From NCBI RefSeq assembly GCF_022829445.1, contig NZ_JAKSXY010000012.1, positions 1 to 32,764 on the forward strand: a DNA stretch of 32,764 bases, in the 5' to 3' direction. Under the pieces are notes generated by a model. The model saw nothing but the letters and a program-made list of their open reading frames with translations. It had not been told where the DNA came from and ran no database searches. Below are positions 8,694-26,479 of this stretch, one piece after another; within the stretch, counting starts at the first letter, position 1, and the number at the start of each line of letters is the position of its first letter. The position numbers were made by a program, and so were the translations under genes. The DNA comes from Methylobacterium sp. J-068. GTDB lineage: Bacteria > Pseudomonadota > Alphaproteobacteria > Rhizobiales > Beijerinckiaceae.

Positions 8694-11549
8694 ATGTTTC
8701 CGGGGGGGAGGCGCAGGAGCCAGGAACTCCAGCGAATGATGGCCGACAAGGCCGTCGCAGCGACTCGTCGTACGCTCCTTCTTTCTCGTAAGTTGAAATC
8801 GGAAAAGTTGCCGCCCTGTGAAGACGCTACGCCATCAGCGGGGCAGCGTTGCGTTCAGGTAGATTTGACGGAGGCCGAGGCATCAGTCCGCCCGACCAGT
8901 GAGTTCGACGTCAGGGCGGAACTGGCTCTGAGACCACGCCTTGCCATCAAGCCTGCCGCCATCGCGAGGGCCCGCTTCCAGGTCGATGCTGGTGCGGTCG
9001 AGGTCACGCATCTGCTCCATGTGCTTCTAGCAACCGCGCTTGCCACTGAGGTCGACAAGCCGATCTGCATCGTGCTGCCTTCGACGGATCAGGTTCCCGA
9101 AACCGTCGGCCTCATGGCTGCCATTGAGTGTCTTGCAGTGGATCTGCAAGGCACTCGTCCCGCCTTCAGGGAAAATCTGCGTCCAGGCAAGCGCGTTCGC
9201 TTACATCCGGGCGGCGAGGTGTTCGAGCTCGATGCCGTCAACGGGGACGGGTCGCTGCAACTACGGATGATGGACAAGGCTACTTACAAGTCCAACGGAA
9301 CCCGCTACGCTTCGGCCGACCGGGCCTTCTGGTTCGAGCCAACCACGCGCCGCCAACCGCTCGGGACCCAGCACACGAAGTTCGTCGCTCCTTGGCCAAA
9401 CCAGTTGGACATGCTGCTGGGCGGCCAGCTTTTTGCCAACACTGGCCTCGTCAGAAACAGGGTCATCCTGGCAGGCATGAGGAAGGGTTTCGAGCGCACG
9501 CTTGCCTCTGTTCCCCTGGTAAGCGTCGAGGGTCCCGCGTTGATGCCCGTCAGGCAAGTCTTTCCGTTCGGCGGGTTGGATGCTGCTGGCAAGGCCTACG
9601 TGATCGAACCATCCGGCTCTGCCGGTCAGCCCATGGTCGCCATCGAGAGGGAACTGCTCGACCTCGAACGTGCCTGTCTTGCCGAGGACATTGAAGCCGG
9701 ATCCAAGATCGTTCTTACCGATCGTCTCGATATGATCCTCAGAGATCTCAGCTTGGCTGGGCGGATTGCCGAGCGGCAGCGGCTCATCCTGTTTGTCGAG
9801 GCTCGCAGGCGCTCGGAGATTGCGTTGCTGGCGGACAAGGGATGGGTTGTCTGGGAGCCGACCGCCCACGAGATTATCGGAGCCGGCCCATCGGACATCT
9901 GCATGGGCTCCAAAGGCATCGACGCCTCCCTTCGTGCAGCTGCCGGCGAGACGCTGAGAACGCCTGGTTTCATCTCCTGCAAGTCGCAGACGCTCAGACA
10001 GGCAGATGCGGCTCTCGCACGCCTTGGTCTGCAACTGAGGGATGAGTCGGTCGAGGAAGAGGAATGGGTGGAAGACCTTCTGTCAGGTGCCCAGGACCTC
10101 TTCTTCTCGTGCGGAAACTGGTTGACGGTGCCCGAGGACGTCGAACTCGATGGCGCCGTCGCCGCTGCGGATCGGATCAGGCGTGCCGCCGATCGCATCG
10201 GAGCGAGACTGGGCCCGGAAGGTGCCGAAGCCGCGGTCGAGTTCGCGGACGCCGTCGACAATTTCCGTTCGTCGGCAATCCGAGGCAGCCTCACGGCTAA
10301 AGGCAGCGAGTTGCTTCGCTTGGCCCGGGCGGCCAGCGAGGGCACGTACAAACAGATGTTCGTCACCGGAAACCGTCAGGGCCGCGAGCGAGCCGATGCC
10401 TTCTTCAGGCGCCACGACCTTGGAACGCGCTGCGTGGCCGTGCGCGAACTCGCCCAGGAAGGGGACAGAGCATCGATCGTCGCGTTCTCGATCATGCGTC
10501 GGGATCTCTTCGAGCGCCTCGTCGATCCTTGGCCTTCGGCGAACACGCTGTTCCTCGGGTACGAGTTCGAGACCGACTGCTACCGACGGCGCCTTGGTCG
10601 ACGGGATGCCCTGCGCCGGACCATGCGACTCGATGCCGAGAGCCGCACTAGGCTCACGAGCATCGCCGGGGCAAGGTTCCCGGAGCCGCGCCATGAGGCT
10701 TCGGCGGAACCGCTGGCACCAGCTGACGTCAATCACCTCAACGGCTTCGATCGCGCGACCAGAGAATGGAGCTGGGTGAGGCGGATCACCATCCCGGCGC
10801 CATCGCACGGGGAGGATACCTGCGAGGCCCGCATCGTCCGCTTCGCGGGGCGTTCGTGGTCGGCCATGACCGCCGAACACGAAATCACTCTGCTCGTTCC
10901 CGGCGAGGGCGGGCAAGCTTCAGTCCGCGAGGTGCATATCGCCGACCTCGCGTCCGGTACCCGGATCGTAGTCCGGGAGGGCGGAGACCGAGACGTGATC
11001 CGCCTGCTTGCACAAGATATCAAAGGCGAGGAGGGCTACGAAACGCTCCGCCAGCACTCGGGCCTGTGGCGCCGCGTCCTGCGCGCGGCCTCCGTCGATC
11101 ATGCAGCCATCCATCGCAGGCTCGAACTCGTCGGCGTTCGTCGAAATCTGGCGACCATCCGTGCTTGGCTTCACAATGCCGCCTTAATCGGCCCCCGCTC
11201 AGTCGACGATGTCGACGGCATCGCGCGGGCTTTCCCGGACCCGACGATCAAGGCCGCCGCGTGGAAGGCGTGCATGGATGCGATCGCGGAGCTGCGGGCA
11301 CTTCATCAGACGGCCGGATCCAGGCTCACCGCCCTGCTGTCCCACCGCTGCGGCAAGATGCTGCTTGAACCCTCCGACACCGAGCTGGCCATCGATCTCG
11401 GCATCGGTACCGTATGGGTGCTTGAGGTGGCGGGCGTGGAGGACGAGACGCGCGAGTGCCCGGCCTCTTACGTCAATCGCATCCACTGGCAGGACCCTGC
11501 CTGGAAGGCGGGGCTCCTGACGTCTCAGCTGCGCGCCAGGGCCGCCTGA
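8694..11549 (+). CDS. DrmE-like protein, first gene of a DISARM-like operon
   Basis: This 951-residue protein is not related to any enzyme I can name with certainty. Its place directly ahead of a nuclease-helicase and the DrmA/DrmB pair, its length, and a C-terminal part with HEITLLVPGEG, VHIADLASGTRIVVREGGDRDVI and a following GLWRRVLRAA resemble DrmE, the protein of unknown function in class 2 DISARM. The segment KPICIVLPSTDQV near residue 125 looks like a beta-strand and turn of a Rossmann-like fold, but no intact Walker A motif is visible. ATG 8694 has a weak ribosome site; ATG 8736 is an in-frame alternative. The stop is one base before the next start, so translation is probably coupled. 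Confidence 0.5.
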   Translation: MFPGGRRRSQELQRMMADKAVAATRRTLLLSRKLKSEKLPPCEDATPSAGQRCVQVDLTEAEASVRPTSEFDVRAELALRPRLAIKPAAIARARFQVDAGAVEVTHLLHVLLATALATEVDKPICIVLPSTDQVPETVGLMAAIECLAVDLQGTRPAFRENLRPGKRVRLHPGGEVFELDAVNGDGSLQLRMMDKATYKSNGTRYASADRAFWFEPTTRRQPLGTQHTKFVAPWPNQLDMLLGGQLFANTGLVRNRVILAGMRKGFERTLASVPLVSVEGPALMPVRQVFPFGGLDAAGKAYVIEPSGSAGQPMVAIERELLDLERACLAEDIEAGSKIVLTDRLDMILRDLSLAGRIAERQRLILFVEARRRSEIALLADKGWVVWEPTAHEIIGAGPSDICMGSKGIDASLRAAAGETLRTPGFISCKSQTLRQADAALARLGLQLRDESVEEEEWVEDLLSGAQDLFFSCGNWLTVPEDVELDGAVAAADRIRRAADRIGARLGPEGAEAAVEFADAVDNFRSSAIRGSLTAKGSELLRLARAASEGTYKQMFVTGNRQGRERADAFFRRHDLGTRCVAVRELAQEGDRASIVAFSIMRRDLFERLVDPWPSANTLFLGYEFETDCYRRRLGRRDALRRTMRLDAESRTRLTSIAGARFPEPRHEASAEPLAPADVNHLNGFDRATREWSWVRRITIPAPSHGEDTCEARIVRFAGRSWSAMTAEHEITLLVPGEGGQASVREVHIADLASGTRIVVREGGDRDVIRLLAQDIKGEEGYETLRQHSGLWRRVLRAASVDHAAIHRRLELVGVRRNLATIRAWLHNAALIGPRSVDDVDGIARAFPDPTIKAAAWKACMDAIAELRALHQTAGSRLTALLSHRCGKMLLEPSDTELAIDLGIGTVWVLEVAGVEDETRECPASYVNRIHWQDPAWKAGLLTSQLRARAA

Positions 11550-11550
11550 C

Positions 11551-13302
11551 ATGGCCGTGATGGTACCTCGTCACGTCGACGCGTCCATCGTCGCGTCCGA
11601 GCGTCGCGTCTTCGAGGCGCTGCGCTCCGCGTCGTTGAGCGAGGGCTGGACCGTCCTGCACTCCCTCGGGCTTTCGAGCGCTTGGACGGGCGAGTTCGGG
11701 GAGATCGACTTCGTCGTCGTGATCCCAGGTCTCGGCATCGTCTGCATCGAGGTGAAGGGCGGGGGCGTCTCCGTCGCGGACGGCGTCTGGACCACCCGCA
11801 ACCGCTACGGCACGACGGAGCGGCTGAAGCGCAGTCCCTACCGTCAGGCCCAGGAGGGCCAGTGGAAGCTGGTGGCCGCTCTCAAGGCGAAGTTCGGGGC
11901 AGGCTCGCAAGAGGCGCGTTGTCCCATCGGATGGCTCGTCGTGTTCCCCGATGTCATGAGCCCGCCGCTCACCCCGGAGGCGACCCGGGATGAGGTCATT
12001 GCCCGAGACGAGCTCGATGGCGACATCGGACCCCGGATACGCTCCACGCCCTCGCTTGCGAAACTCGCCGGGCGGGCGGATCTCGTCGCGCCGAACGCTG
12101 CGACCTGTTCGCGGATGCTGTCGTTCCTCCGCCCGGATTTCGAGCGGGTGCCATCCCCGGCATCCGAGCATTGGGATGCCGATGCGCGACTGAAGATCCT
12201 GACGGAGGAACAGTTCGAGGCCCTCGACAATGTCTCGGACAATCCTGTCTGCCTCCTCCGCGGTCCCGCGGGAACGGGCAAGACCTTGATCGGCATAGAG
12301 CAGGCCCGCCGGATCGCCCAGACGGGGGGCAGCGTCCTCGTCGCATGCTTTAACGGAGGCCTGGGTGGCTGGCTGCAGGACGCGACGGCGGGCTTTGGAC
12401 CGGGGCGCGTCGTAGCCGGCCACCTGCATGGGCTTCTCAGGGACCGGATCGCGAACTCTCCCTTCGCCGAGGACCTGCGACAGGCGGAGCAGGCCGGGAC
12501 CTCCGGCGATGAGCTGTACGGGCGCCACTACTACGAGCTGGGGGCGCTCGCCGTAGAGGAGAGCGGGGAACGCTTCGACGTCATCGTCTTCGACGAGGTC
12601 CAGGACCTGCCGTCCTCGCGGGTTGCGGAGCTGCTGAAGGTGTGGTCGCACACCGCCGGAGGCACGAGGATCCTGCTCCTCGGCGACTTCACGAGACAGG
12701 CGCTCTACACAGGTTCGTCCGACGCATCACTGGAGCTTCTCAGGGCGTCGCTCGGCGATGTCGCCGTCTTCAACCTGCGCCTCAACTGCAGGAACACCCG
12801 TCGGATCGCGATGCAGACGGGCGTCTTCAGCGGCTTCGGGGAGCAACGGCTGAGCGAGCGGCAGCCGGAAGGCGAGCAGGTCAGCCTGCAGTTCCACGCC
12901 GACCGCGCCTCCGGCCTCGCGAAACTCGATGCAGTCGTGCGGCAGCTGCGCGAGAGCGGCATCAAGGCCGCTGACGTGGTCATCCTGGGACCGCGGCGGC
13001 GCGAGAACTCGCTTCTGTCCGGTGTCGCCACCGTCGGAGGCTGGCCCATCAGGGACGCCCACGCTCCCGGGCAGGGCGTCGCCTACGCGACCGCCCACGC
13101 GTTCAAGGGCCTTGAGCGGAAGGTCGTCATCGTCGTCGATGCCGATGCCCGGTACCAGGACGAATCGGACGCCATCCTCTACGTTGCTATGTCGCGGGCA
13201 CGCCTGCGGCTGTTCATCCTCGCCCCCGAGACGTCGCGTCCGGTGATGGAGAAGCGGATGACGGACGCCGTTCTCGCCACCCTTGCACAGAAGGCATCAT
13301 GA
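11551..13302 (+). CDS. NERD nuclease fused to an SF1 (UvrD-like) helicase
   Basis: The 583-residue protein opens with a NERD domain (about residues 10-115): GEIDFVVVIPGLGIVCIEVKGG supplies the Asp and the E-x-K of a PD-(D/E)xK-like nuclease. A helicase follows: LRGPAGTGKT (Walker A, about 238-247), VIVFDEVQDL (Walker B, about 345), a long middle part with LLLGDFTRQ, then YATAHAFKGLERKVVIV (about 511) and LYVAMSRARLRLFIL (motif VI, about 541). It should unwind and possibly cut DNA. The ATG follows the previous stop by one base, and its own stop overlaps the next ATG. NERD-helicases occur in many defence islands; it is not one of the five founding DISARM components. Confidence 0.85.
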   Translation: MAVMVPRHVDASIVASERRVFEALRSASLSEGWTVLHSLGLSSAWTGEFGEIDFVVVIPGLGIVCIEVKGGGVSVADGVWTTRNRYGTTERLKRSPYRQAQEGQWKLVAALKAKFGAGSQEARCPIGWLVVFPDVMSPPLTPEATRDEVIARDELDGDIGPRIRSTPSLAKLAGRADLVAPNAATCSRMLSFLRPDFERVPSPASEHWDADARLKILTEEQFEALDNVSDNPVCLLRGPAGTGKTLIGIEQARRIAQTGGSVLVACFNGGLGGWLQDATAGFGPGRVVAGHLHGLLRDRIANSPFAEDLRQAEQAGTSGDELYGRHYYELGALAVEESGERFDVIVFDEVQDLPSSRVAELLKVWSHTAGGTRILLLGDFTRQALYTGSSDASLELLRASLGDVAVFNLRLNCRNTRRIAMQTGVFSGFGEQRLSERQPEGEQVSLQFHADRASGLAKLDAVVRQLRESGIKAADVVILGPRRRENSLLSGVATVGGWPIRDAHAPGQGVAYATAHAFKGLERKVVIVVDADARYQDESDAILYVAMSRARLRLFILAPETSRPVMEKRMTDAVLATLAQKAS

Positions 13303-16300
13303 CCGGTCGTACCGTCGGCACGACCCGCGAGGTGCGGGACTTCATCATCGACAGCCTCCGTCGGGAGCTGATCGGACCGGCGCCGGGCTATCCGCTCATG
13401 CGGGTCGATCTCTCCGCCGACCGCAAGTGCCATGGCCAGGAGATCCTTCGGCCCCAGGACCCGCCCCGCTATCGCTACTCCGCCGGCATCCTGTTCCCCG
13501 CCGGCGTGAACTTCTCTGCGACGCTGGATGCCGGCGAGGAGGCCGCAGACATCGAAGAAGCCGCCGCCGTCGGTGAGGATGGCGTGGGCGGCAGCGCAGC
13601 CGAGGCCGGCGTCGACGATCAAGCCGAGATCGAGGCGACGGCGAGCGAGGACCGTACGCCCGACACGGACGTGGAGGTCGATCCCACCTCGACCTTCCTG
13701 CCCAGCACCATGGGGGTCAGTTTCCTAGCCGACGTGAGCGGGGGAATCCGCGTCAAGGCGTCCTGGGGCACCTATCACAAGGAGGCCGTCGCCGGCTTTC
13801 CAAGCTTTAAGAAGGATGGATCGGCGGCCGAGCTCTGGTTCCGGACGCCGGACGAGAAGTCGGAGGAATACCGGCTTGACGAACTGGCAGGTCGCGAGAC
13901 CCGCATCCGGCTCCCGCGCAGGCGTGTCTCGCCGCCGGCGCTTGCCGGGGAGCTCACCATCGATGTGGTCAGCCGCCCGGCCGGAGGGAACGAGCGTCTG
14001 GTGACCGTCACGCTGGTCAACGTCGCCCAAAATTCCCGGCCCATCAACGAGAAGTGCTTCTTCCAATGCTCCCTTTCGGTGGAGTCGCTGCCGGGCACAA
14101 TCATCCTCGCCTATCCGGGCAGGCCATCCTCGATGCAGGACGAGGAGGAGGCCTCGCTGAGCCTGCTGTACCGCCACCGGCCTACCTACGCGGTCGGGCA
14201 TGGCTGCGCCGCCGACTGGGATATTGGTGGCGAGGGTTTGCCGATCCGCATCCGAAGCGAGACGCTGCCGGTCTTCGAGCAGCCCCCGGTGCTGCCGCTT
14301 GAGGACGCGCCGGGCGTGGAACTCTCGATGCGGAAGCTCGCGGAAGCCTCCCGGGCGGATGTCGCCTCCTCCTGCCGCGCCCTGGCAGACGCGTACGAGG
14401 CCTGGATCGATGAGCGGGACCGCGAGCTCGCGGCAGATGCCGGGCTGGCCAACGAGCCGGAGCTGAAGGATCGAGGGGAGGAGCACCTCCGGGAATGCCG
14501 GGACTGCCTGGGGCGGATCAGGAAGGGCGTCGATCTGCTCGACGATGACCCGGACGCATTCGAGGCGTTCCAGCTCATGAATATGGCCATGGTGCGCCAG
14601 CGCGCGCACTACGCCCTGTCGTCCGAGGATGACAAGCGGCGCAAGTGGGTCAAAGGAGCCGGCGGCCAGGAGCCGACGGTCCCCTATCCCGCCCCTGCCT
14701 ATCCGTACGAGACCAGATGGCGGCCTTTCCAGCTCGCCTTCGTCCTCATGAACGTTCGCTCGTTTGTAGAGCCCGGGCACGAGGAGCGCAGCCTCGTCGA
14801 CGTCATCTGGTTCCCGACAGGCGGCGGGAAGACCGAGGCCTACCTCGGCCTCACGGCGCTCGTGATCCTGCTCCGCAGGCTGCGTGATCCAGCCGACGCG
14901 GGTACCACCGTCCTGATGCGCTACACCCTGCGGCTGCTGACCACGCAGCAGTTCCAGCGGGCGGCGTCGCTCATCTGCGCGCTCGAACTGGTCCGTCGGG
15001 ACAATCCGAAGCGTTTCGGTGACCTGCCCATCACCATCGGGCTGTGGCTGGGCTCGTCGGTGACCCCGAACAGGGACGCCGCCGCCAGCGTGGCGTTCGG
15101 CAAGCTGACCTCCGAGGGGGGCGACAACCCCTTCGTGATCCTGTCCTGCCCCTGGTGCGGGGTCGACATGGGGCCGCACGACTACGACGGCGATACCCGC
15201 GTCTTCGGCTACCGGCGCGAGAAGAGGACGGGCGGGGACCAGCACGTACGCTTCCGTTGCGAGGATCCCGGCTGCGCCTTCTCAACGGCGGATGGGTTGC
15301 CCCTGGAGGTCGTGGACGAGGGCATCTATCGGGAGCCCCCGACGCTGCTGATCGGCACCGTCGACAAGTTCGCGATGATGCCGTGGAGCCCCGAGGCACG
15401 GTACCTTTTTGGCATCGACAACGAGAACGCGGTCACGCCTCCCGAGCTGGTGATCCAGGACGAGCTGCACCTCATCTCCGGGCCCCTCGGCTCCATGGTC
15501 GGCCACTACGAGACCGTGATCGACGAGTTCACGACCCACGTGGCTGACGGGGCCCGTATCCCGGCGAAGATCGTGGCGTCGACGGCGACGATCGCACGCG
15601 CCGGACAGCAGGTGAAAGCCGTCTACGGTCGCGACGCCAAGCTCTTCCCGCCGCAGGGGCTTAAGGCGGGTGAATCGTTCTTCGCGCGCGAAGGATCCGG
15701 GCAGGCTGGCCGCACCTACGTCGGCGTCCTCGCCACGGCCGTCCCTTCGCACGTCACGGCGCAAGTCCGCACACTGGCGACCCTGCTCCAGGCTCCCGCG
15801 CTAGTGGAGGCCGCGACCGGCCTTGATGGGCTTGTCGATCCCTACTGGTCGCTCGTCGTCTACTTCAACAGTTTGCGGGAGCTCGGCCGGGCCTCCACAC
15901 TCGTACAGGCCGACATCCGCGAGTACCTGAACGCGGTCTGGGACCGGATCGGGCTCTCCTTCGAGGCGACCTACGGCGCCCCGGATCAGCGGCGCTTCAT
16001 CAACAACTTCGACGAGCTCACCAGCCGGATGCGCAGCAGCGACATCCCGGGCGTGCTGCAGAAGCTCTTCACGGCGAAGCCGTCCAAAGAGACCGTCGAC
16101 CTTTGCTACGCGACCAACATGATCCAGGTCGGCCTGGACGTACCGCGCCTCAGCATCATGTCGATCGTTGGTCAGCCGAAGGGAGCATCGGAATACATTC
16201 AGGCTTCGAGCCGCGTCGGCCGCGGGCGCGACAAGCCGGGGCTGGTCATCACCAATTTCAACCCGTTCAAGCCTCGCGACCGGTCACATTTCGAGAGCTT

Positions 16301-16766
16301 CAGGCCATTCCATGAGAACGCCTACCGGCATGTGGAGCCGACCAGCGTGACACCGTTCTCGATCCCGGTCTGCGAGCGTGCCATCCACGCCCTGGCCGTT
16401 GCCATCGTGCGCTTCCGCTACCCGCAGCATCGCGACAGGCCGAACCTGGGGCTTTCGGACGCTGAGCGGAAGGCGGTGACCGCCATCGTCATGGACAGGG
16501 TCGCCCTGGTGGATCCCGACGAGGTGTCGAGAGCGCGCGCCACCCTCGACCGGTTCCTCGACGATTGGCAGCGTCGGAAACCCCAGAACTACGGGAAGGT
16601 GTCCGAGATCCCGGACGATCCGCTGATCTATCCGGCAGGGCGGGCGCTTCCGCAGAACCTCAACCACCTCGTCGGAACGGTCAAGGCGACCGCAACTTCG
16701 ATGCGGAACGTCGATGCGGACTGCGAGGCCACCCCGGTCCCGGTCTATGCGAGCGGGAGCGTCTGA
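13299..16766 (+). CDS. drmA: DrmA-like SF2 helicase (DUF1998-associated)
   Basis: The protein has 1155 residues. An acidic N-terminal third rich in Glu/Asp/Ala (about residues 75-130) precedes the helicase. WFPTGGGKTEAYLGL (about 505) is motif I, IQDELHLISGPLG (about 720) is motif II with a DELH box, STATIARA (about 760) is motif III, and EYIQASSRVGRGRDKPGLV (about 965) is motif VI. A CPWCG...C...C insertion (about 616-660) is a likely zinc knuckle between motifs I and II. The length, the DELH box and an adjacent DUF1998 gene match DrmA. In DISARM, DrmA and DrmB form a complex that binds DNA. Its ATG overlaps the previous stop, and its TGA overlaps the start of drmB. Confidence 0.85.
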   Translation: MTGRTVGTTREVRDFIIDSLRRELIGPAPGYPLMRVDLSADRKCHGQEILRPQDPPRYRYSAGILFPAGVNFSATLDAGEEAADIEEAAAVGEDGVGGSAAEAGVDDQAEIEATASEDRTPDTDVEVDPTSTFLPSTMGVSFLADVSGGIRVKASWGTYHKEAVAGFPSFKKDGSAAELWFRTPDEKSEEYRLDELAGRETRIRLPRRRVSPPALAGELTIDVVSRPAGGNERLVTVTLVNVAQNSRPINEKCFFQCSLSVESLPGTIILAYPGRPSSMQDEEEASLSLLYRHRPTYAVGHGCAADWDIGGEGLPIRIRSETLPVFEQPPVLPLEDAPGVELSMRKLAEASRADVASSCRALADAYEAWIDERDRELAADAGLANEPELKDRGEEHLRECRDCLGRIRKGVDLLDDDPDAFEAFQLMNMAMVRQRAHYALSSEDDKRRKWVKGAGGQEPTVPYPAPAYPYETRWRPFQLAFVLMNVRSFVEPGHEERSLVDVIWFPTGGGKTEAYLGLTALVILLRRLRDPADAGTTVLMRYTLRLLTTQQFQRAASLICALELVRRDNPKRFGDLPITIGLWLGSSVTPNRDAAASVAFGKLTSEGGDNPFVILSCPWCGVDMGPHDYDGDTRVFGYRREKRTGGDQHVRFRCEDPGCAFSTADGLPLEVVDEGIYREPPTLLIGTVDKFAMMPWSPEARYLFGIDNENAVTPPELVIQDELHLISGPLGSMVGHYETVIDEFTTHVADGARIPAKIVASTATIARAGQQVKAVYGRDAKLFPPQGLKAGESFFAREGSGQAGRTYVGVLATAVPSHVTAQVRTLATLLQAPALVEAATGLDGLVDPYWSLVVYFNSLRELGRASTLVQADIREYLNAVWDRIGLSFEATYGAPDQRRFINNFDELTSRMRSSDIPGVLQKLFTAKPSKETVDLCYATNMIQVGLDVPRLSIMSIVGQPKGASEYIQASSRVGRGRDKPGLVITNFNPFKPRDRSHFESFRPFHENAYRHVEPTSVTPFSIPVCERAIHALAVAIVRFRYPQHRDRPNLGLSDAERKAVTAIVMDRVALVDPDEVSRARATLDRFLDDWQRRKPQNYGKVSEIPDDPLIYPAGRALPQNLNHLVGTVKATATSMRNVDADCEATPVPVYASGSV

Positions 16767-18640
16767 TGAAGTCGGGGTTCAAGGGGCGCTTCGGCAAGGG
16801 CAAGGCCAAGGGCGCCCAGACGCAGCCTCGGAAGCCGCCGCGGCGGCGTCCTATACGCAGGTCGCAGGTCATCAGCCCCTTCGGGATCGGCGCGATCAAC
16901 GACTTCAGGAACGACGAGGCCCTGATGTGCGCGGGGCTGGACCAGTGGTTCCCTGACGGGGCCGCGCCGGATCCGGCTCTTGTCGTGAACGAGGAGCGGC
17001 TGGAGGCGCGCCTTGGGTGCAGCCACTTCAGGAAGCCCCCGGATTTCGGGGAGGGCGAGGGCAGCCCTAAGGTCAAGATCCCTCACGTCCGCTTTCCGCT
17101 GTGGCACTACTGCCCGCGATGCTTCCGCATGGGCAAGACGACGATCTTCGGCGGCCAGCCGCAATGCACGGAATGCAAAAGCAAGGCAGGTCACGGCAGG
17201 CGGATGATCCCTGTTCGCATCGTGGCCATCTGCGAGCACGGACATATCGAGGACTTCCCGTTCCAGAACTGGATCGGCTGCGCCTGCAGCGACGCCGATC
17301 GCAATCTGTTCTTCGAGGCGGGTCGGAGCGCTGCCAGCCTCGCCGGCATCAAGATCAGCTGCGACAACTGCAAAAAGACCCGCTCCCTGGCGGGCTCCTT
17401 CGACAAGGATGCCCTGACGGGCTACAAGCAGTGCGGCGGCGCCCAGCCCTGGCTGGGCCGCGAGACCGGCGTGACAACGTGCGGGCAGGCCTTGCAGACC
17501 GTCCAGCGAGGCGGGGCGAACGTCTACTTCCCCCTCGTCACCAGCTCGATCTACATCCCGCCGACACGGACCGCCGAGAGCGACCTCATCGCCCGCGTCC
17601 TCGACAACCCAACCGTTTGGCGCACGCTCACTAGCGTCACGGTGGACGGGAAGGTGCCGAAGGACGTCTGCACGGCGATCGCGGGCGTCTATCAGGTCGA
17701 TGCCGACGCTCTCGGCAAAGCCGTGGCAGCCCGCCTCGCGGGCTCGGCCGCCCTGGTGGTGGCGACGACCGAGGAGGAATTTCGCAAGCAGGAATACGAT
17801 GTCCTCAGGAGTGGCGGCGGAAGGCCACAGGACGACCTGTTCGTGGAGCGCATCGAGGGCAGCCGCTACGGCTGGCTCGGCCGCTTCGTCACCGGCATCG
17901 GTCTCGTCCGCAAGCTGCGCGAGACGCGGGTGCATGTCGGGTTCTCCCGTCTCATGCCCCAGACGGACCGCGGCGATCCGGCCGTCCAGCCCCTCGGGAT
18001 CGCGGATACCATCGATTGGCTCCCAGCGATCGAGGTGCGTGGCGAGGGGATCTTCGTCGAGTTGAGGGCCGACGCGATCGAGGAATGGCTTAAGGACGGC
18101 GTCGCCGGCAAGCGGGTCAGGCCGCTCATCGGCGGGTACAATCACAAGCGCGTCGAGAGGAGGCTGGCGGAAAGGCCGGTCGACGCGCGGTTCATCATGA
18201 TCCAGACGCTGGCCCACGCCCTCATCAAGGAGCTGACGTTCACCTGCGGCTACGGCTCCTCGTCGCTGCGCGAGCGCCTGTACTGCAGCATCGAGAACCC
18301 CAAGCAGCCCATGAACGGGTTCCTGATCTACACGGCGTCCGGCGATTCCGAAGGCACGCTGGGGGGCCTCGTCGCGCAGGCGGCGCCCGGACGCTTCGAG
18401 ACGCTGGTGCACGACGCGCTCGCCAGGGCATCGTGGTGCTCGAACGACCCGGTCTGCATGGAGAGCCCGGACGGCGGGGCGTTCTCGTCCAATCTCGCCG
18501 CCTGCCACAGTTGCGTGCTGCTGCCGGAGACTAGCTGCGAGGAGGGAAACAGGCTGCTCGACCGGGCGCTGCTGGCCGGCACCTTCGACGATCCCGACGT
18601 CGGCTTCTTCCGCGATCTCGATTTCTCCTGGGCGCAGTAA
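16766..18640 (+). CDS. drmB: DrmB-like DUF1998 protein
   Basis: The product is 624 residues from the ATG at 16766, which overlaps the drmA stop (TGATG). The N-terminus is basic (KGRFGKGKAKG...RRRPIRRS), followed by SPFGIGAINDF. Several cysteine pairs follow: YCPRC and CTEC (about 115-135), CDNC (about 200) and a C-terminal group with CHSCVLLPETSCEEGN (about 580). TLAHALIKELTFTCGYGSSSLRERLY (about 480) is the signature of DUF1998. In DISARM, DrmB pairs with DrmA. The operon ends here: only 80 bp follow before a decayed vsr-like gene. The start at 16565 in the same frame would overlap drmA by 200 bp and was rejected. Confidence 0.87.
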   Translation: MKSGFKGRFGKGKAKGAQTQPRKPPRRRPIRRSQVISPFGIGAINDFRNDEALMCAGLDQWFPDGAAPDPALVVNEERLEARLGCSHFRKPPDFGEGEGSPKVKIPHVRFPLWHYCPRCFRMGKTTIFGGQPQCTECKSKAGHGRRMIPVRIVAICEHGHIEDFPFQNWIGCACSDADRNLFFEAGRSAASLAGIKISCDNCKKTRSLAGSFDKDALTGYKQCGGAQPWLGRETGVTTCGQALQTVQRGGANVYFPLVTSSIYIPPTRTAESDLIARVLDNPTVWRTLTSVTVDGKVPKDVCTAIAGVYQVDADALGKAVAARLAGSAALVVATTEEEFRKQEYDVLRSGGGRPQDDLFVERIEGSRYGWLGRFVTGIGLVRKLRETRVHVGFSRLMPQTDRGDPAVQPLGIADTIDWLPAIEVRGEGIFVELRADAIEEWLKDGVAGKRVRPLIGGYNHKRVERRLAERPVDARFIMIQTLAHALIKELTFTCGYGSSSLRERLYCSIENPKQPMNGFLIYTASGDSEGTLGGLVAQAAPGRFETLVHDALARASWCSNDPVCMESPDGGAFSSNLAACHSCVLLPETSCEEGNRLLDRALLAGTFDDPDVGFFRDLDFSWAQ

Positions 18641-19155: not shown

Positions 19156-19629
19156 CTACTCGACCAGCTTGGCGGGCCACCTGCCGGCTATCTCACCATG
19201 CTGCTCATCACCTCTTAGAAAGTCTGCGCAGCTCGCAGCTACATCATCTTTCGGGCGCCTCGCCGGGCCCTTCACACTACACTCCCAAACAGTAAGGATC
19301 CGCCATCCGGCCGCCTCGAGCTGGGCGGCCTTCCGCTGGTCACGCGCGCGGTTGCCGGAAATCTTTGCAGACCAGAACTCCTGCCGCGTGCCCGGCATCT
19401 TGAACATCGGGCAGTCATGGCCGTGCCAGAAACAGCCATGGACGAAGATGGCAGCCCGGAAGCGTGGAAACACCATGTCAGGCCGGCCAGGCAGCTCGCG
19501 GGCATGGAGCCGGTAGCGGAAGCCGGCAGCGTGCAGACTTTTCCGCAGTACGAGCTCGGGTTTGGTATCACGCCCCCGGATCCGGCTCATGTTCAGACGC
19601 CGCTGCTCCGGCGTGAGCACGTCCGCCAT
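19156..19629 (-). CDS. vsr: Very short patch repair endonuclease Vsr
   Basis: At 157 residues it matches the usual length (E. coli Vsr has 156). The active-site residues fall at the E. coli numbering: Glu25 (DTKPE), Asp51 (GRPD), His64 and His69 (VHGCFWHGH). The zinc ligands Cys66, His71, Cys73 and Cys117 are also present. Vsr nicks beside T:G mismatches that arise when 5-methylcytosine deaminates, so it protects sites methylated by the C5 methyltransferase of the same operon. The ATG lies 3 bp after the stop of the McrC-like gene. It is the last gene of the minus-strand operon. Confidence 0.95.
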   Translation of the reverse strand: MADVLTPEQRRLNMSRIRGRDTKPELVLRKSLHAAGFRYRLHARELPGRPDMVFPRFRAAIFVHGCFWHGHDCPMFKMPGTRQEFWSAKISGNRARDQRKAAQLEAAGWRILTVWECSVKGPARRPKDDVAASCADFLRGDEQHGEIAGRWPAKLVE

Positions 19630-19632
19630 CCG

Positions 19633-21303
19633 CTACAACGCAACCGGCGCGGCGGTAGCATCGGCAACCACCATTCGCAGGGCCTCCGTGATCTGCCCGG
19701 TGCTCATTCCGGGTCTGAGTGTGAGCGCGCCGAAGCGGAAGCCGCTCCGGTATTCAGGATGAAACAGCCGGCTTGGCATGGCGGTCCCACGATAACCGGC
19801 CTCGAGCTCCGGAACATGCGGTGCCAGCAGGTATGCCGCTGTCACGAAGCCCTTGATAGTCTCCGGCCCCTCTTCCTGCACCAGGGCGTCCCGATAAGCA
19901 TGGATCGAGCTCAGCGCATCGTTAAGCCCGGCCTCGATGCGGTACTTTGCATCGAGGACGATCAGCCGTCCGACCTCATCGGGGGACGCCGGCGTAAAGG
20001 CGGCCACCACGTCAGGGATCATATCTCGGCTGTAGGATCCGCGACGGTCGGTTTCGAGCCAGAACTCGCGGTATCGCTTCTGGAAGCAGAGTGACCAACC
20101 CCTTCCGACCGGAACTGTGACCGCGCCGGCGGCCAGAGTCACACCGCCGGCGGCATCAGTGACGAACAGGTCCCCTATCTCGAGCCCCGAAGGGCCGAAC
20201 TCCTCTGCAGCTGCCCGTAGCAGCCGCAGGAAGCACCACAGCTCATAGAGTTCAAAGGTGCGGGCCAGGGGCAGGTCGAGGAAGTCGCCGAATACCGCCG
20301 CAATGCCGAGGTTCATGTCCTGCCAGAGACGGTAGAAGCGCCGGTAAGTAGGATCGTTGCGGAACAGGGCTGACAGTACGAGGCGCGCCGGACCCTCACC
20401 CGCTTCCGCAAAGGGCTCCGCCTTCGTCAGCTGGCTGATCCGTCGAGAAAGCTGCCGGCACCGGGCCGCCCACGCTGCTGCAGCCTGCCGGATCTCGGCT
20501 TCTCCGCCGGCAGGGCTGCGATCGAGGATCCCAGCGACGGCACCGAGCCATGCCGCCCAGGAGCGAAGGCAGGCGGCCATCTGACGGTGCTCGGGCAGGT
20601 CGAGCGTGCTCCGGCGCTGCCGGACGCGGATCTGCTCCGGCAGAAAGCCTTGCAGGGCTGCCGGCAGACGCGACGGCGAGCCTTTCTCCTGCAGGATGCG
20701 ACCGGAGCGGAAGGATCGCAGGATCTCCGGTCCGGTGGCACGGGTGGCCCGGTGGTAAGGGAGCGTCACTTCCTCCAAGCCGAGGCGGCGCCTGGGATGA
20801 CGCTCGATCAGCGCGACCACTGCCTCAAGCTCGCCAATACGCGAGCGCAGGAACTCGAGGCGCGCGATCGGAGGTGGCCGGTTGCCGGCTCCTCTGGCAA
20901 CGGCCTTCCGGAAGCTGCTGAGCGAGAACAGGGCGAAGGTGTCCTCGATGATCTCGCGCACCATTGCGTCGAAGGCATCTCGCGTCAGCTTGCGGCGGTC
21001 AGGATCCGTGATGATCTCGAACCGGCGTGGCCCCGAACCCGGGACACGCAGCTCGGCCTCGACGGTGCCGGCGTGGAAGCCGGGTGACCAACGCCAACGG
21101 GCCATATCGGCTGCCGGCGCCCGCAGCGCCTCGAGCGTGTGGTCATCGAGCGCCAGCTCCGCCCCGAATGCCTCAGGGCAATCCCGCAGCTCGAAGAGGT
21201 AAGTTCGGGTTTCCTGGACCGTACCAGGAGCAACGGGCTCCGGATCCGGCCAGACGCGCCACCGTGCGCCGGTCGCCTCGCTCATCATCAGCAGCGCGGT
21301 CAC
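19633..21303 (-). CDS. McrC-like DUF2357 restriction nuclease subunit
   Basis: The protein has 556 residues. The N-terminal half, with DAFDAMVREIIEDTFALFS (near residue 110), fits the DUF2357 region of proteins that pair with McrB-like ATPases. The C-terminal part contains a PD-(D/E)xK nuclease core: SRDMIPDVVAAF (about 424-435, catalytic Asp) and LIVLDAKYRIEAG (about 445-457, Asp-x-Lys), then SIHAYRDAL. It should be the DNA-cutting subunit, driven by the McrB-like protein encoded 9 bp upstream. In the LlaJI system a similar pair acts with cytosine methyltransferases. The next gene, vsr, starts 3 bp after its stop. Confidence 0.8.
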   Translation of the reverse strand: MTALLMMSEATGARWRVWPDPEPVAPGTVQETRTYLFELRDCPEAFGAELALDDHTLEALRAPAADMARWRWSPGFHAGTVEAELRVPGSGPRRFEIITDPDRRKLTRDAFDAMVREIIEDTFALFSLSSFRKAVARGAGNRPPPIARLEFLRSRIGELEAVVALIERHPRRRLGLEEVTLPYHRATRATGPEILRSFRSGRILQEKGSPSRLPAALQGFLPEQIRVRQRRSTLDLPEHRQMAACLRSWAAWLGAVAGILDRSPAGGEAEIRQAAAAWAARCRQLSRRISQLTKAEPFAEAGEGPARLVLSALFRNDPTYRRFYRLWQDMNLGIAAVFGDFLDLPLARTFELYELWCFLRLLRAAAEEFGPSGLEIGDLFVTDAAGGVTLAAGAVTVPVGRGWSLCFQKRYREFWLETDRRGSYSRDMIPDVVAAFTPASPDEVGRLIVLDAKYRIEAGLNDALSSIHAYRDALVQEEGPETIKGFVTAAYLLAPHVPELEAGYRGTAMPSRLFHPEYRSGFRFGALTLRPGMSTGQITEALRMVVADATAAPVAL

Positions 21304-21312
21304 CGCGCGGCC

Positions 21313-22968
21313 CTACCGGCTGGCCTGGAACGAGCCGAACTCGTCAAGATCACTCAGCAGCCGTGAAAGGTAGGCTTCGGAGCGGGTCAGCGGGAGCGCC
21401 TTCTGCAGGCCAGTCAGCATGGGGCGCTGCTTCTCCGAGCCGCGCAGCTTCACCAGAACCTTCTGCACCATCAGTTCGTCCACGGTCGCATCCGCATCCT
21501 GACCCAGGGTCGTCGTTGCAAAGGCATGGTAGCGAACTACCTCCTCAGCGACCCGGTAGCCGAAGCCGAGGTTCTGCGGGTGCATCAGCTCCTGTGCAGC
21601 CAGCAGACGCGGCTCGCAGGCAGTCCGGGCATCTTTCAGAGCGGGTTCGCGCACCTCGAGATTTGCGAAGAAGCCGGCCAGATCGACGGCGGACATGTCG
21701 ATGACCATGGCGCGATCGAGCACTTTGTCGCTGACCGCATTGGTGGTCTCATCGATGTTGATGGTGCTGACGATGAACAGGTTTTCGGGCAAGGGCAGTA
21801 CGGCGGGCACTGTCGTCCCGGTCGATCCCTCGAGCGGCACGCCGCTCGAGTGCAGCTGCAACGCTTCACCGGTCTCGACGCCTGAAAGCACGTCCGAGAA
21901 ATAGTATTCCACCCGGGCCAAGTTCATTTCATCGAGGACTACGAACACCGGCGAGTCCCGGTGTGCGGTGGCGAGCAGCACCGCCTCGAGGAAGGGCGGC
22001 ACCATATAGCGGTTAGAGAGCACGTCGAAATAACCGGTCAGCCCGGTTGGATCCGTCCACTCGGGCCGCACCGGACAGATGAACAGGAAGGGGTCGAGAT
22101 CCTTCATCGTCTTCAGGCCGTGCACCGCCCGCGCGTACTTCAGCGCCAGCTGCGTTTTTCCCGTTCCTGACAGGCCGGCCAGGATGACGAAGTGCTTGTG
22201 CTGTAGGAAGTTGAGCGCGGCGTGGAAGCGGCGGACCTCGCCGCCCGGGTAATGACCTCCGAGGGCAGTCACAGCTGCCTCAAGCTCGCCGATCGGGATC
22301 GAGGCCGGCATCCGGCGCATCTCGGCGCTGACCGATCCCGCTTCATCCCAGACACGCAGCTCGTGGACCCTCTCGCGCCCGATCAGGTCGCCTAGATAGC
22401 CCACGAAGGAGCGCGCGAGCAGGCTTCGCCGTGCCGAGGCGGCAGGCGGCCAGATGGCAAAATGAATGGTGTCGATCCGGGCGAGGCAGTCCGGGTCCAG
22501 CTCACCCTTGGCAAGAGCCTCGCGCAGCGACTCCTTGAAGTCGTAATTATGAAAATACAGGTTGCTCGTGTCGGTGATATAGAATTTGACGTTGTTGCTG
22601 ATGCTGCCTGTCTTCTTGGCAGCGGCAACCAGCGCTGCGTTGCGCGCCTCTCCCTCGTGGAACAGTTTTGCCAAGCCAGCATTCAGCTTCGCTGCATCGG
22701 AACGCACCGAAATCGCAAAATACACTTCGTCATGCGGAGGGAAGGTCAGGACGCAGAGCAGCACCATCTGCTCGAGCGGTGCCCCGGTGCCCCTCACGAG
22801 CTTCTCGGAATACGTCTCGAGGTTGTTGGTACACGCGAACAGCCCTCCCTCGAGAACCCTGGCGCTGTTGGAGAACCCGAAATTCGCTGCGATCCTGGCG
22901 TCCGGGCGGATGCCCGGCAACGCCTTAATCGCTGTTTCAAACTGCTGCTGCCGCTCGCTGGACGACAT
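21313..22968 (-). CDS. McrB-like AAA+ NTPase restriction subunit
   Basis: The 551-residue protein has a 240-residue N-terminal part of unclear fold, expected to recognise DNA, and a McrB-type AAA+ domain. GLSGTGKTQLALKYARA (about 262) is Walker A. VFVVLDEMNLARVEYYFSDVL (about 340) is Walker B with the DEMNLARVE signature of McrB relatives. FIVSTINIDETT (about 395) is the sensor region, with an arginine in DKVLDRAMVID. McrB proteins hydrolyse GTP; whether this one uses GTP or ATP cannot be read from sequence. It starts 32 bp inside the end of the methyltransferase gene, so translation is coupled. Confidence 0.87.
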   Translation of the reverse strand: MSSSERQQQFETAIKALPGIRPDARIAANFGFSNSARVLEGGLFACTNNLETYSEKLVRGTGAPLEQMVLLCVLTFPPHDEVYFAISVRSDAAKLNAGLAKLFHEGEARNAALVAAAKKTGSISNNVKFYITDTSNLYFHNYDFKESLREALAKGELDPDCLARIDTIHFAIWPPAASARRSLLARSFVGYLGDLIGRERVHELRVWDEAGSVSAEMRRMPASIPIGELEAAVTALGGHYPGGEVRRFHAALNFLQHKHFVILAGLSGTGKTQLALKYARAVHGLKTMKDLDPFLFICPVRPEWTDPTGLTGYFDVLSNRYMVPPFLEAVLLATAHRDSPVFVVLDEMNLARVEYYFSDVLSGVETGEALQLHSSGVPLEGSTGTTVPAVLPLPENLFIVSTINIDETTNAVSDKVLDRAMVIDMSAVDLAGFFANLEVREPALKDARTACEPRLLAAQELMHPQNLGFGYRVAEEVVRYHAFATTTLGQDADATVDELMVQKVLVKLRGSEKQRPMLTGLQKALPLTRSEAYLSRLLSDLDEFGSFQASR

Positions 22969-24436
22969 AATTTTCCTTTTGTTGGGATCCGTTCAGCGCC
23001 TCCAGCACCGTGGAGGCTAGCGCCTTGGCCACCAGCGGCGGCACGGCATTACCGATCTGCCGGAAGGCCGGGTTCATCGTCCCGCAGAACACGAAGCCAT
23101 CCGGGAAGGATTGCAACCGGGCTGCCTCACGGACAGAAATCGTCCGGGCCTGCTCGCTGTCGTAGTGGATGTGGCTGTAGCCGTCCTTGCCGAGGTGAGC
23201 CATCAGCGTCCGCGCCGGCTGATCGCGCCACATCTTCCGCCATTTATTCGGGAATTTCCCGGCATCATAGGGCGGTACGATCGCGTTTTTCAGGCGAAGA
23301 TACTCCGGGCTGCCTTCGCGGACCCGCACGCCCTGCAGGCGCAGCTGCTCGATGCGCTCGGCCAGCATGATCATCGCGTGGCGGTGCGCCTCCGGGTACT
23401 GATCGCCCGGGTTCAGCCTGGCAAAAAGCTCGTAGTCGCGGGGCAGGTAGCGGATGACGTGGTCCTTGATGCCTTCGGCCGGATGCTCGAAACCGGGCCA
23501 GGTTCGCATCAGGCGGGCGTAGTCGGAGATCTTGCGCCGAGCATCGGAGACCATAACCTGATCGAACCGGCGTGCTCCCCGTTTCAGCACGCCGGCGGCG
23601 AGCTGCTTACGGGCGTATATCGGTGTCAGGTCGCTTAGCGCCTTTTCGGCCGTGACGGCCGCTGTCTGCTTCCGATTGGGTGCGGGCGGCTCAATGTAGT
23701 CGTGTGCATTACCCTCCGCGCCGTTCAGCAGCTTAAGAGCAACCGAGCGGGACCCCTCATAGCCTAGCGGAAGGTCCATCCAATGGGTGGGGGCCGGGAA
23801 GGCCACCTGATCCGTCACCTCACGGTGATAGGCGATCAGGAACATGCGCTCGCGCATCTGCGGCACGCCGTAGAACGAGGCGTTCAGCAGCGTGTAGCCG
23901 CAGACGTAGCCCTTCGCCTCCAGGACCTCGCAGATCTCCTCGGCGATATTCTGGCCGCCGTGGTTCAGCACGTCGGGGACATTTTCGATCACCACGGCGA
24001 GCGGCTGGAAGGCCTCCACGTAGCGGAGATATTCCTGGTAGAGCCTGGCGCGCGGATCATGCTCGAAGGCGCGGGGATGGGCATCAATCTCGCGCAGCTT
24101 CGGCCGGCCGACCCGGGCAAACGCTTGGCATGGCGGGCCGCCCACCAGAACGTCTAAAGCATCTTCCGCCAGCCCGAGCTCGAGCTCCGCTGCCAGATCC
24201 TCCGGATGCGTGACGATGATGTCCCGCGCCACGCTGTGGCGGGCGTCTCCGGAATGGAAGTTGAGGCCATGCGAACGTGCGGCGTCCGGGTCGAATTCAA
24301 CCGCTGCATCGATCCGGAAGCCGGCAGCGAGGAAGCCGAGCGAAAGGCCGCCGCAGCCGGCGAACAGATCCAGCACCCGGGGCTTGCCTCCGGTCTGCAG
24401 CCTAGCGAGCTTCCGCCGTGCGATTTCCGGGTTCAT
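22937..24436 (-). CDS. DNA (cytosine-5) methyltransferase
   Basis: All key motifs of a C5 methyltransferase are present in its 499 residues: DLFAGCGGLSLGF (motif I, 23-35), GGPPCQAF (motif IV, catalytic Cys103), ENVPDVL (motif VI, 151-157), QMRERMFLIAY (motif VIII, 193-203), REAARLQSFPD (motif IX) and GNAVPPLVAKAL (motif X). The long stretch between VIII and IX (about 210-430) holds the target-recognition domain, so the recognition sequence cannot be guessed. It would protect host DNA from the McrB/McrC-like pair in the same operon. The start ATG overlaps the stop of the RHH gene (ATGA). It is larger than the usual 330-420 residues because of the long variable region. Confidence 0.95.
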   Translation of the reverse strand: MNPEIARRKLARLQTGGKPRVLDLFAGCGGLSLGFLAAGFRIDAAVEFDPDAARSHGLNFHSGDARHSVARDIIVTHPEDLAAELELGLAEDALDVLVGGPPCQAFARVGRPKLREIDAHPRAFEHDPRARLYQEYLRYVEAFQPLAVVIENVPDVLNHGGQNIAEEICEVLEAKGYVCGYTLLNASFYGVPQMRERMFLIAYHREVTDQVAFPAPTHWMDLPLGYEGSRSVALKLLNGAEGNAHDYIEPPAPNRKQTAAVTAEKALSDLTPIYARKQLAAGVLKRGARRFDQVMVSDARRKISDYARLMRTWPGFEHPAEGIKDHVIRYLPRDYELFARLNPGDQYPEAHRHAMIMLAERIEQLRLQGVRVREGSPEYLRLKNAIVPPYDAGKFPNKWRKMWRDQPARTLMAHLGKDGYSHIHYDSEQARTISVREAARLQSFPDGFVFCGTMNPAFRQIGNAVPPLVAKALASTVLEALNGSQQKENYVVQRAAAAV

Positions 24437-26123: not shown

Positions 26124-26479
26124 GCCTATTCTACCTGAGAACTTTTCAACATCACATGTCGGGCCGTGGCGGCGTGCCAATCTCGACCATTCAATGTCGA
26201 GATGTGCTGAGCATTGAGATCGGCAGCGACAACCCTGAGCAGCCAAGCACGGCCGCACCTTCGTTTCACGGCCCCGATCAGGCGCTTGGACGCCGGTTTT
26301 GGGGCGTTTTGCACCGGGGCTCAAGGGCAGGGATCGGACCATTGTGACAGAGACGATCCGAAAAATCTGGCCTACCAAAAATAAGTCACTGATATAAAAC
26401 AATAAAACTTTGCACGAAAAAACGGCGAGCCCGCAGAAAGAGTATCTGTTATAAATAGCGCAGTGTGACAGGTTGCTGA
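26124..26479. promoter_or_regulatory. Divergent promoter region between Shedu and an unknown nuclease gene
   Basis: The 356-bp gap serves two genes that read away from each other. Bases 26360-26460 are AT-rich and contain TATAAAT at 26450-26456, a possible -10 box, 24 bp before the ATG at 26480, without a good -35 box. No clear palindrome was found. The arrangement suggests both genes may be expressed under joint control. Confidence 0.4.

What the first reader, a model, noticed from the sequence alone, without database searches (positions are those of the whole stretch)
8694..18640. DISARM-like operon with a NERD-helicase and without DrmC or a methyltransferase
Four genes with overlapping or one-base junctions encode a DrmE-like protein, a NERD nuclease-SF1 helicase, DrmA and DrmB. 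Known DISARM adds the PLD protein DrmC and a methyltransferase. Here the NERD domain could supply the nuclease and a second helicase, giving a self-contained variant.
Basis: partly seen in the sequence, partly recalled or inferred. Interest (0 to 1): 0.8.

Follow-up and report, generated by a model that had tools for sequence, protein, structure and literature searches.

The report
DISARM lineage armed with NERD helicase
This bacterial operon belongs to a widespread branch of the DISARM anti-phage family in which no gene for the usual DrmC nuclease was seen and a NERD nuclease fused to a helicase sits in the operon instead, likely supplying the DNA-cutting step that has been hard to place in DISARM defence.

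Summary
In detail: DrmE-family protein, NERD-SF1 helicase, DrmA and DrmB are adjacent on the + strand (1-base gap, ATGA overlap, TGATG overlap). In a NERD-helicase scan, 31 of 33 DrmA-bearing loci share the set, 30 in this order, over about ten phyla. In a DrmA-anchored survey of 60 loci, 23 carry an SF1 helicase, 19 DrmC, none both, though this rests largely on one split of the tree. DrmA of this type falls in a supported 53-row clade; none of the 46 rows that reach past DrmB shows DrmC. Nuclease and helicase catalytic residues are invariant in 51 of 51 NERD-helicases.

'Without a methyltransferase' is wrong as a reading of the system: a C5 methyltransferase and Vsr lie downstream on the other strand, and 15 of 15 such loci in the survey have a C5 methyltransferase nearby, against 5 of 37 others.

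Extra: DrmE is predicted to have an SF2-helicase fold without a P-loop, likely a dead helicase.

Defence and DNA cleavage are inferred. Verdict: a new, phylogenetically distinct variant of DISARM.

The parts
8694..11549 (+). DrmE-family protein (951 aa; start may be 8736); predicted SF2-helicase fold without a P-loop
   Evidence: identity; fold, no Walker A
11551..13302 (+). NERD (PD-(D/E)XK) nuclease fused to SF1/UvrD-like helicase, 583 aa; E51, D53, E67, K69, Q99; Walker A K244, Walker B D348-E349
13299..16766 (+). DrmA, YprA-family SF2 helicase (1155 aa), with an acidic stretch (about residues 75-134) at the place of the DrmA trigger loop
16766..18640 (+). DrmB (DUF1998/MZB zinc-binding), 624 aa from ATG 16766
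22937..24436 (-). C5-cytosine DNA methyltransferase, candidate DrmMII-equivalent (PADLOC MTase_II 257.5 bits, DrmMII 250.9)
   Evidence: association
19156..19629 (-). Vsr mismatch endonuclease
   Evidence: association
19633..21303 (-). DUF2357 + PDDEXK_7 nuclease (McrC-like by recall); restriction-type neighbour between Vsr and the P-loop gene
   Evidence: no relative found in the loci L003-L082; not searched for in the later survey loci
21313..22968 (-). P-loop/AAA protein (McrB-like by recall; PADLOC PDC-M26A 5.2e-45), overlapping the methyltransferase gene

Best explanation
These four genes belong to a distinct, widespread lineage of DISARM operons in which no DrmC was seen and which carries a NERD-nuclease/SF1-helicase that likely acts as the effector, cutting phage DNA opened by the DrmA-DrmB helicase. 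Shown by sequence comparison: the conserved gene order, no DrmC where its place could be seen, the invariant catalytic residues of the nuclease and of both helicases, a C5 methyltransferase as the usual neighbour, and the placement of DrmA in one supported clade. Inferred from the solved DrmAB complex: DrmAB stays idle while an acidic loop covers its DNA channel, and loads on single-stranded or 5'-overhang DNA of incoming phage. Inferred: DrmE, predicted to be a dead SF2-helicase fold, serves as adaptor or DNA-binding scaffold; the NERD-helicase moves along the exposed strand and degrades it; host DNA is marked by the C5 methyltransferase, and Vsr repairs the T:G mismatches that arise when 5-methylcytosine deaminates.
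For: Order: 31 of 33 DrmA-bearing loci of the NERD scan have DrmE and NERD upstream of DrmA, 30 in the same order and one (L019) with the two swapped. Gaps are at most 30 bases in 41 of 43 (DrmE-NERD), 42 of 43 (NERD-DrmA) and 36 of 38 (DrmA-DrmB) loci (L019 left out). Exclusion: SF1 helicase 23, DrmC 19, both 0 of 60 DrmA-anchored loci; with contigs that end before the place of DrmC left out, 22, 17 and 0 of 53. Tree: a clade of 53 DrmA rows (SH-aLRT 100) with 46 NERD-upstream loci and no DrmC in the 46 rows that reach past DrmB; a nested clade of 41 with 40 NERD-upstream, the other being on a contig that begins at DrmA. Catalysis: E51, D53, E67, K69, Q99, K244, D348 and E349 invariant in 51 of 51. 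Co-evolution: distance correlation NERD-DrmA 0.97, NERD-DrmB 0.94, DrmE-NERD 0.95, against 0.52-0.62 for the four core genes with the methyltransferase (34-45 loci a pair). Methyltransferase 15 of 15 against 5 of 37. Acidic loop: net negative in all 49 NERD-type DrmA examined, at the place of the trigger loop of solved DrmA (PMC9142583, passages seen).
Against: My paper searches brought up no assay of a member. In tested DISARM, DrmC appears dispensable (PMC9142583, passages), so a nuclease may not be needed and the NERD-helicase may be auxiliary. Five loci inside the 53-row clade have DrmE-DrmA-DrmB without NERD-helicase (L083, L087, L172, L174, L175); in four of them no DrmC is seen either, L087 ends too soon to tell. 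NERD-helicases of the same type also occur with no DrmA in the fetched stretch (L015, L033, L036). The exclusion of DrmC rests largely on one split of the tree: on independent pairs it cannot be told from chance (7 pairs, DrmC differs in 0-1). Among the 20 DrmE-bearing loci alone it is not significant (0 of 12 with NERD, 2 of 8 without; p 0.15). The A3 query holds 10 NERD-type DrmA of 16 rows at least, which tilts the survey towards this type.
Confidence: 0.6

Rival explanations
1. The NERD-helicase is an accessory (for example clearing or recycling DNA ends), and DrmA-DrmB blocks phage replication by binding and unwinding, without needing a dedicated nuclease.
For: DrmC appears non-essential in tested DISARM, while DNA binding, ATP hydrolysis and the DrmAB heterodimer are needed (PMC9142583, passages). 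Five loci of the same DrmA clade lack the NERD-helicase, four of them visibly without DrmC.
Against: The NERD-helicase is in 46 of 53 rows of the clade, co-varies with DrmA as tightly as DrmE does (0.97 and 0.92), and keeps the eight catalytic residues named in 51 of 51.
Confidence: 0.22
2. The two convergent gene sets form one restriction-modification machine: the McrBC-like pair (P-loop protein plus DUF2357/PDDEXK_7) is the nuclease, and the DrmE-NERD-DrmA-DrmB block feeds it unmodified DNA under the control of the shared C5 methyltransferase.
For: Methyltransferase, P-loop protein, nuclease and Vsr lie side by side on the minus strand and face the Drm block. Other loci pair the same block with an AspBHI-like Mrr enzyme (L004, L007, L008 scanned; L005, L013 same cluster) or with NaeI (L084).
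Against: The P-loop/DUF2357 pair was not found in any of the 33 DrmA-bearing loci of the NERD scan (the later survey loci were not searched for it), the partner enzyme varies, and in Bacteroidota loci the methyltransferase stands directly before drmE without a conserved endonuclease.
Confidence: 0.12
3. The NERD-helicase acts on host nucleic acid or RNA, so that the system works by abortive infection rather than by degrading phage DNA.
For: NERD-helicases also occur in DRT and other defence candidates (PADLOC RTasNERD-Hel 1.3e-30, C3a187 2.7e-15), whose targets may differ.
Against: ARMADA, a related YprA-helicase system, protects by a direct, non-abortive route (PMC12458937, abstract). The helicase pair and the DNA methyltransferase point to DNA.
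Confidence: 0.06

Closest known systems
DISARM class 2 (DrmE-DrmA-DrmB-DrmC-DrmMII; example L166)
   Same: DrmE family, DrmA and DrmB in one operon; C5 methyltransferase and Vsr right beside it, in L166 on the opposite strand as in the window
   Different: DrmC in L166, NERD-SF1 helicase between DrmE and DrmA here; DrmA of L166 falls on the class 1 side of the tree
DISARM class 1 (DrmD-DrmMI-DrmA-DrmB-DrmC)
   Same: DrmA-DrmB core, acidic loop in DrmA
   Different: SNF2 helicase DrmD and DrmMI in place of DrmE and the C5 enzyme; DrmC in 13 of the 17 class 1 loci of the survey
ARMADA type II (PMC12458937)
   Same: YprA-family SF2 helicase paired with a UvrD/GajB-like SF1 helicase that has an N-terminal nuclease domain
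   Different: RelE-like RNase domain, BrxHII helicase, PglX methyltransferase; another YprA clade
TALON (PMC12458937)
   Same: a YprA-family helicase and a NERD nuclease in one operon
   Different: ARMADA-like YprA fused to an inactive RNase H fold, TPR-CSD and TBP genes; here DrmA and DrmB are separate and DISARM-like
NERD-helicases of DRT and of other defence candidates; Gabija GajB
   Same: NERD + UvrD architecture (PADLOC PDLC03813, PDLC01087) or UvrD-like helicase alone (GajB models)
   Different: as listed by PADLOC these belong to other systems; the present one is tied to DrmA, DrmB and DrmE

Membership tests
DISARM (any class) | DrmA helicase | tested here: met
   PADLOC DrmA 1.2e-217; solved DrmA 7s9v 2.5e-145; NCBIfam DrmA 939 bits, just under the 950 cut-off
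DISARM (any class) | DrmB (DUF1998) as a separate gene | tested here: met
   NCBIfam DrmB_fam 415.7 bits, cut-off 240; TGATG junction
DISARM class 2 (definition in PMC9252829, passage) | DrmC phospholipase D-like gene | tested here: not met
   none among the window genes scanned; no match in the own genome with one DrmC model; 0 of 23 SF1-helicase loci in the survey, 22 of which reach past DrmB
DISARM class 2 | DrmE | tested here: inconclusive
   DrmE family relative: DrmE_fam 2.2e-18 but under its cut-off, DrmE_C 26.3 against 27 bits, HHalign probability 93 with canonical DrmE; no PADLOC DrmE match
DISARM class 2 | DrmMII C5 methyltransferase | tested here: inconclusive
   C5 methyltransferase present on the other strand; DrmMII 250.9 bits, generic MTase_II 257.5. 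In three relatives scanned DrmMII is the best match
DISARM class 1 | DrmD and DrmMI | tested here: not met
   no match among the ten window genes scanned with PADLOC
TALON | YprA helicase of ARMADA type in one chain | tested here: not met
   DrmA and DrmB are separate; best PADLOC matches DrmA and DrmB
Anti-phage activity | protection against phage | not testable with these tools

The most novel reading that the evidence does not exclude
A third class of DISARM, spread over about ten phyla, in which a NERD-nuclease/SF1-helicase is the built-in effector in place of DrmC, and DrmE is a catalytically dead SF2 helicase that couples it to the DrmA-DrmB sensor: a three-helicase-fold machine that answers which nuclease DISARM uses.
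Probability: 0.5. Interest if true: 0.75.

Novelty: new variant of a known kind. Interest (0 to 1): 0.62.

Why it matters
DISARM studies left open which nuclease destroys phage DNA, because DrmC is dispensable and often missing (PMC9142583, passages). This lineage carries a nuclease-helicase with invariant active sites inside the operon, which makes the question testable with point mutations. PADLOC's published type II definition requires DrmC (PMC9252829, passage), so a rule of that kind would not count these loci as complete. The predicted dead-helicase fold of DrmE gives a structural idea of what that protein might do.

Tried and rejected

A first motif search for the acidic loop missed 69 of 97 DrmA and was replaced by alignment columns. 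The independent-pairs test had too few contrasts to confirm the DrmC exclusion, and the test within DrmE-bearing loci was not significant.

Paper searches that brought up no account of a NERD-helicase in DISARM, seen as listings. The only held paper with DISARM, DrmA, DrmB and NERD is PMC12458937, of which I saw the abstract, passages and sections 5 and 8; its NERD passage is about TALON. Its supplements were not open to me. Of PMC9142583, PMC9252829, PMC10952713, PMC9716671 and PMC10270631 I saw passages; of PMC13192584 the abstract and section 11. Ofir 2018 is not held; what I say of the classes beyond these passages is recalled.
Full report
1. The block. The window comes from an assembly of 5.1 Mb in 128 contigs; the nearest named relative of two of its proteins is Lichenibacterium dinghuense (86% and 92% identity). 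It holds four tightly packed + strand genes at 8694-18640. Junctions read from the DNA are a 1-base gap (DrmE stop to NERD ATG at 11551), an ATGA overlap at 13299 and a TGATG overlap at 16766. Family scans give DrmE_C (just below cut-off), NERD + UvrD-like helicase, DrmA and DrmB. Upstream lie transposase-like and resolvase genes, downstream a restriction-type gene set and a Shedu gene. In the sample no DrmA match at E <= 1e-60 was found in the five other genomes of the same genus, so it looks like an accessory trait.

2. Conservation. A scan of a species-level genome collection with 47 NERD-helicases found 162 related stretches, of which the best 80 were kept. DrmA is present in 33 of these 80, and 31 of the 33 have DrmE and NERD upstream of DrmA. 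Thirty keep the order DrmE-NERD-DrmA; L019 has NERD and DrmE swapped. The other two are L035, where the DrmA match is a partial ORF on the other strand, and L039, with a helicase after DrmB. Six of the 31 contigs end before the place of a gene after DrmB (L010, L013, L016, L017, L030, L031). Most of the remaining 47 loci are more distant NERD-helicases without DrmA in the stretch; L015, L033 and L036 are closer by score but have no DrmA. Record titles and the taxonomy printed with the tree place the 31 in Pseudomonadota, Acidobacteriota, Chloroflexota, Verrucomicrobiota, Gemmatimonadota, Cyanobacteriota, Bacteroidota, Planctomycetota, Myxococcota and Bacillota, plus one MAG labelled Mycoplasmatota. 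Many are MAGs, so single labels may be wrong. The survey and a Rhodococcus plasmid add Actinomycetota.

3. The converse test. DrmA was searched with alignment A3 (16 rows, at least 10 of NERD type, which tilts the sample) at E <= 1e-60: 14 of 398 genomes in the window's phylum, 8 of 299 in that of L032 (Bacillota), 26 of 296 in that of L046 (Actinomycetota), 14 of 247 in that of L027 (Bacteroidota). I fetched 61 loci and left out one duplicate (L109). Of the 60, 23 have a match to the NERD-helicase profile upstream of DrmA (15) or after DrmB (8; some of these have no NERD part, as in L095), 19 have DrmC, none has both (Fisher 1e-5). In the 52 with DrmA over 600 bits (L101, a cut contig at 462 bits, kept in) the numbers are 23, 14 and 0 (Fisher 6e-5). 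Leaving out contigs that end before the place of DrmC, they are 22, 17 and 0 of 53; for the NERD-upstream type alone, in the stricter 48, DrmC in 0 of 15 against 14 of 33 (Fisher 0.002). The low-scoring DrmC loci may be Dpd-like (inference). Relatedness weakens all this: on the tree there are only 7 independent contrasts, and DrmC differs in 0 or 1 of them. A separate search for DrmE_C in the class of L032 hit 11 of 398 genomes; of the 10 loci newly fetched 3 have the NERD-helicase, 2 DrmC, 5 neither, one of the 5 being cut. Among the 20 DrmE-bearing loci of survey and this search, DrmC is in 0 of 12 with NERD and 2 of 8 without (p 0.15). The exclusion is therefore mainly a property of one lineage.

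4. The methyltransferase. In the same 52 loci a C5 methyltransferase lies in the fetched stretch in 15 of 15 NERD-upstream loci and in 5 of 37 others (Fisher 3e-9); Vsr in 8 of 15 and 4 of 37 (Fisher 0.002). On independent pairs the methyltransferase goes the same way in about 4 of 6 and never the other way (median p 0.125). DrmE is recognised by the profile in 9 of the 15 and not in the other 6. In the NERD scan 26 of 31 have the methyltransferase and 14 of 31 Vsr; the five without the methyltransferase are on contigs that end inside the operon. Best PADLOC matches for the methyltransferases of L027, L169 and L008 are DrmMII; for the window's own, a generic type II model is ahead by 7 bits. 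L014 carries a C5 methyltransferase with a HhH-GPD glycosylase-like part (1.1e-4, under its cut-off), which could do the same repair job as Vsr (inference). In canonical class 2 (L166: DrmE over the equivalog cut-off, DrmC, DrmMII) methyltransferase and Vsr also lie on the opposite strand just past the operon, as in the window.

5. Phylogeny and co-evolution. In a DrmA tree of 97 rows (IQ-TREE, quick search, SH-aLRT only) the window falls in a 53-row clade (support 100) of 46 NERD-upstream loci, 5 with DrmE only and 2 others; no DrmC is seen, and seven of the rows end before its place. Inside it a 41-row clade (support 96) holds 40 NERD-upstream loci and L108, whose contig begins at DrmA. The NERD-upstream label as a whole needs 8-9 changes on the tree, so it was gained or lost more than once. 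Class 1 and the canonical class 2 locus L166 lie elsewhere. A second arrangement, an SF1 helicase after DrmB in the place of DrmC, occurs in several branches (for example L085, L095, L100, L113, L123). Distance matrices correlate 0.88-0.98 among DrmE, NERD, DrmA and DrmB, but 0.52-0.62 with the methyltransferase and 0.39-0.57 with Vsr (19-45 loci a pair): the four genes travel together, the methyltransferase module is likely exchanged more often. The accompanying endonuclease also varies: McrBC-like pair in the window, AspBHI-like Mrr enzyme in L004, L007 and L008 (L005 and L013 cluster with them), NaeI in L084, none recurrent in the Bacteroidota loci.

6. Active sites. In 51 NERD-helicases (window and 50 loci; L004 and L092 are one sequence) E51, D53, E67, K69, Q99, K244, D348 and E349 are invariant; K106 is not. 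DrmA K511, D721 and E722 are invariant in 46 of 46. The 60 residues before the conserved PS motif of DrmA are net acidic in all 97 DrmA; they beat every other 60-residue stretch sampled after it in 47 of 49 NERD-type, 13 of 18 class 1 and 24 of 30 other ones. So the loop is common to DISARM, not special to this type. In the solved DrmAB complex a loop near this place blocks DNA until a 5' overhang displaces it (PMC9142583, passages); the match of place rests on the alignment.

8. Mechanism. DrmA-DrmB senses single-stranded or overhang DNA, the NERD-helicase translocates and cuts, the C5 methyltransferase marks self, and DrmE holds the parts together. Only the anatomy and conservation are shown; cutting, targeting and protection are inferred. 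An analogy, not a proof: in Druantia III the YprA-family helicase DruE has its own nuclease and works on DNA with exposed single strands (PMC13192584, abstract and section 11).

9. Genome-wide check of a DrmC in trans: none with PADLOC PDLC02594 in the whole assembly, a model that rings in 4 of 14 control genomes. Two PLD-domain reading frames of 485 and 1089 aa exist elsewhere; they were not tested further, so a host PLD nuclease in trans is not excluded.

Noticed in passing
window 24969-26492 (-) and 26480-28096 (+): A Shedu SduA gene (PADLOC 6.9e-143) in divergent arrangement, overlapping if both listed starts are right, with an unknown 538-aa gene without Pfam or PADLOC match.
   Followed up: no
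window 19156-24436 (-): Methyltransferase, P-loop protein (PDC-M26A match), DUF2357-PDDEXK_7 nuclease and Vsr in one minus-strand set; resembles LlaJI-type McrBC-like restriction (recalled).
   Followed up: partly
L004 4622-10000, L005 4822-9999, L092 613-5991: The DrmE reading frame is 1.7-1.8 thousand residues long, with a Walker A-like string near its N-terminus: possible fusion of a P-loop protein to DrmE, or only a long open frame in GC-rich DNA.
   Followed up: no
L085, L095, L100, L113, L123, L133, L140, L143: A second DISARM arrangement with an SF1 helicase, in some with NERD, directly after DrmB in the usual DrmC position.
   Followed up: partly
L014 16925-18859: C5 methyltransferase with a HhH-GPD glycosylase-like C-terminal part (weak match), a possible stand-in for Vsr.
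   Followed up: no
L004 18996-20225, L007 18651-19961, L008 3852-5489: AspBHI-like Mrr restriction enzyme (PF18062 + PF04471) beside the methyltransferase and Vsr of the NERD-DISARM locus; two more loci (L005, L013) cluster with it.
   Followed up: partly
L172, L174, L175, L083 (and L087, cut): Loci of the same DrmA clade with a short or split DrmE, and neither NERD-helicase nor DrmC seen: natural losses useful for testing whether a nuclease is needed.
   Followed up: partly
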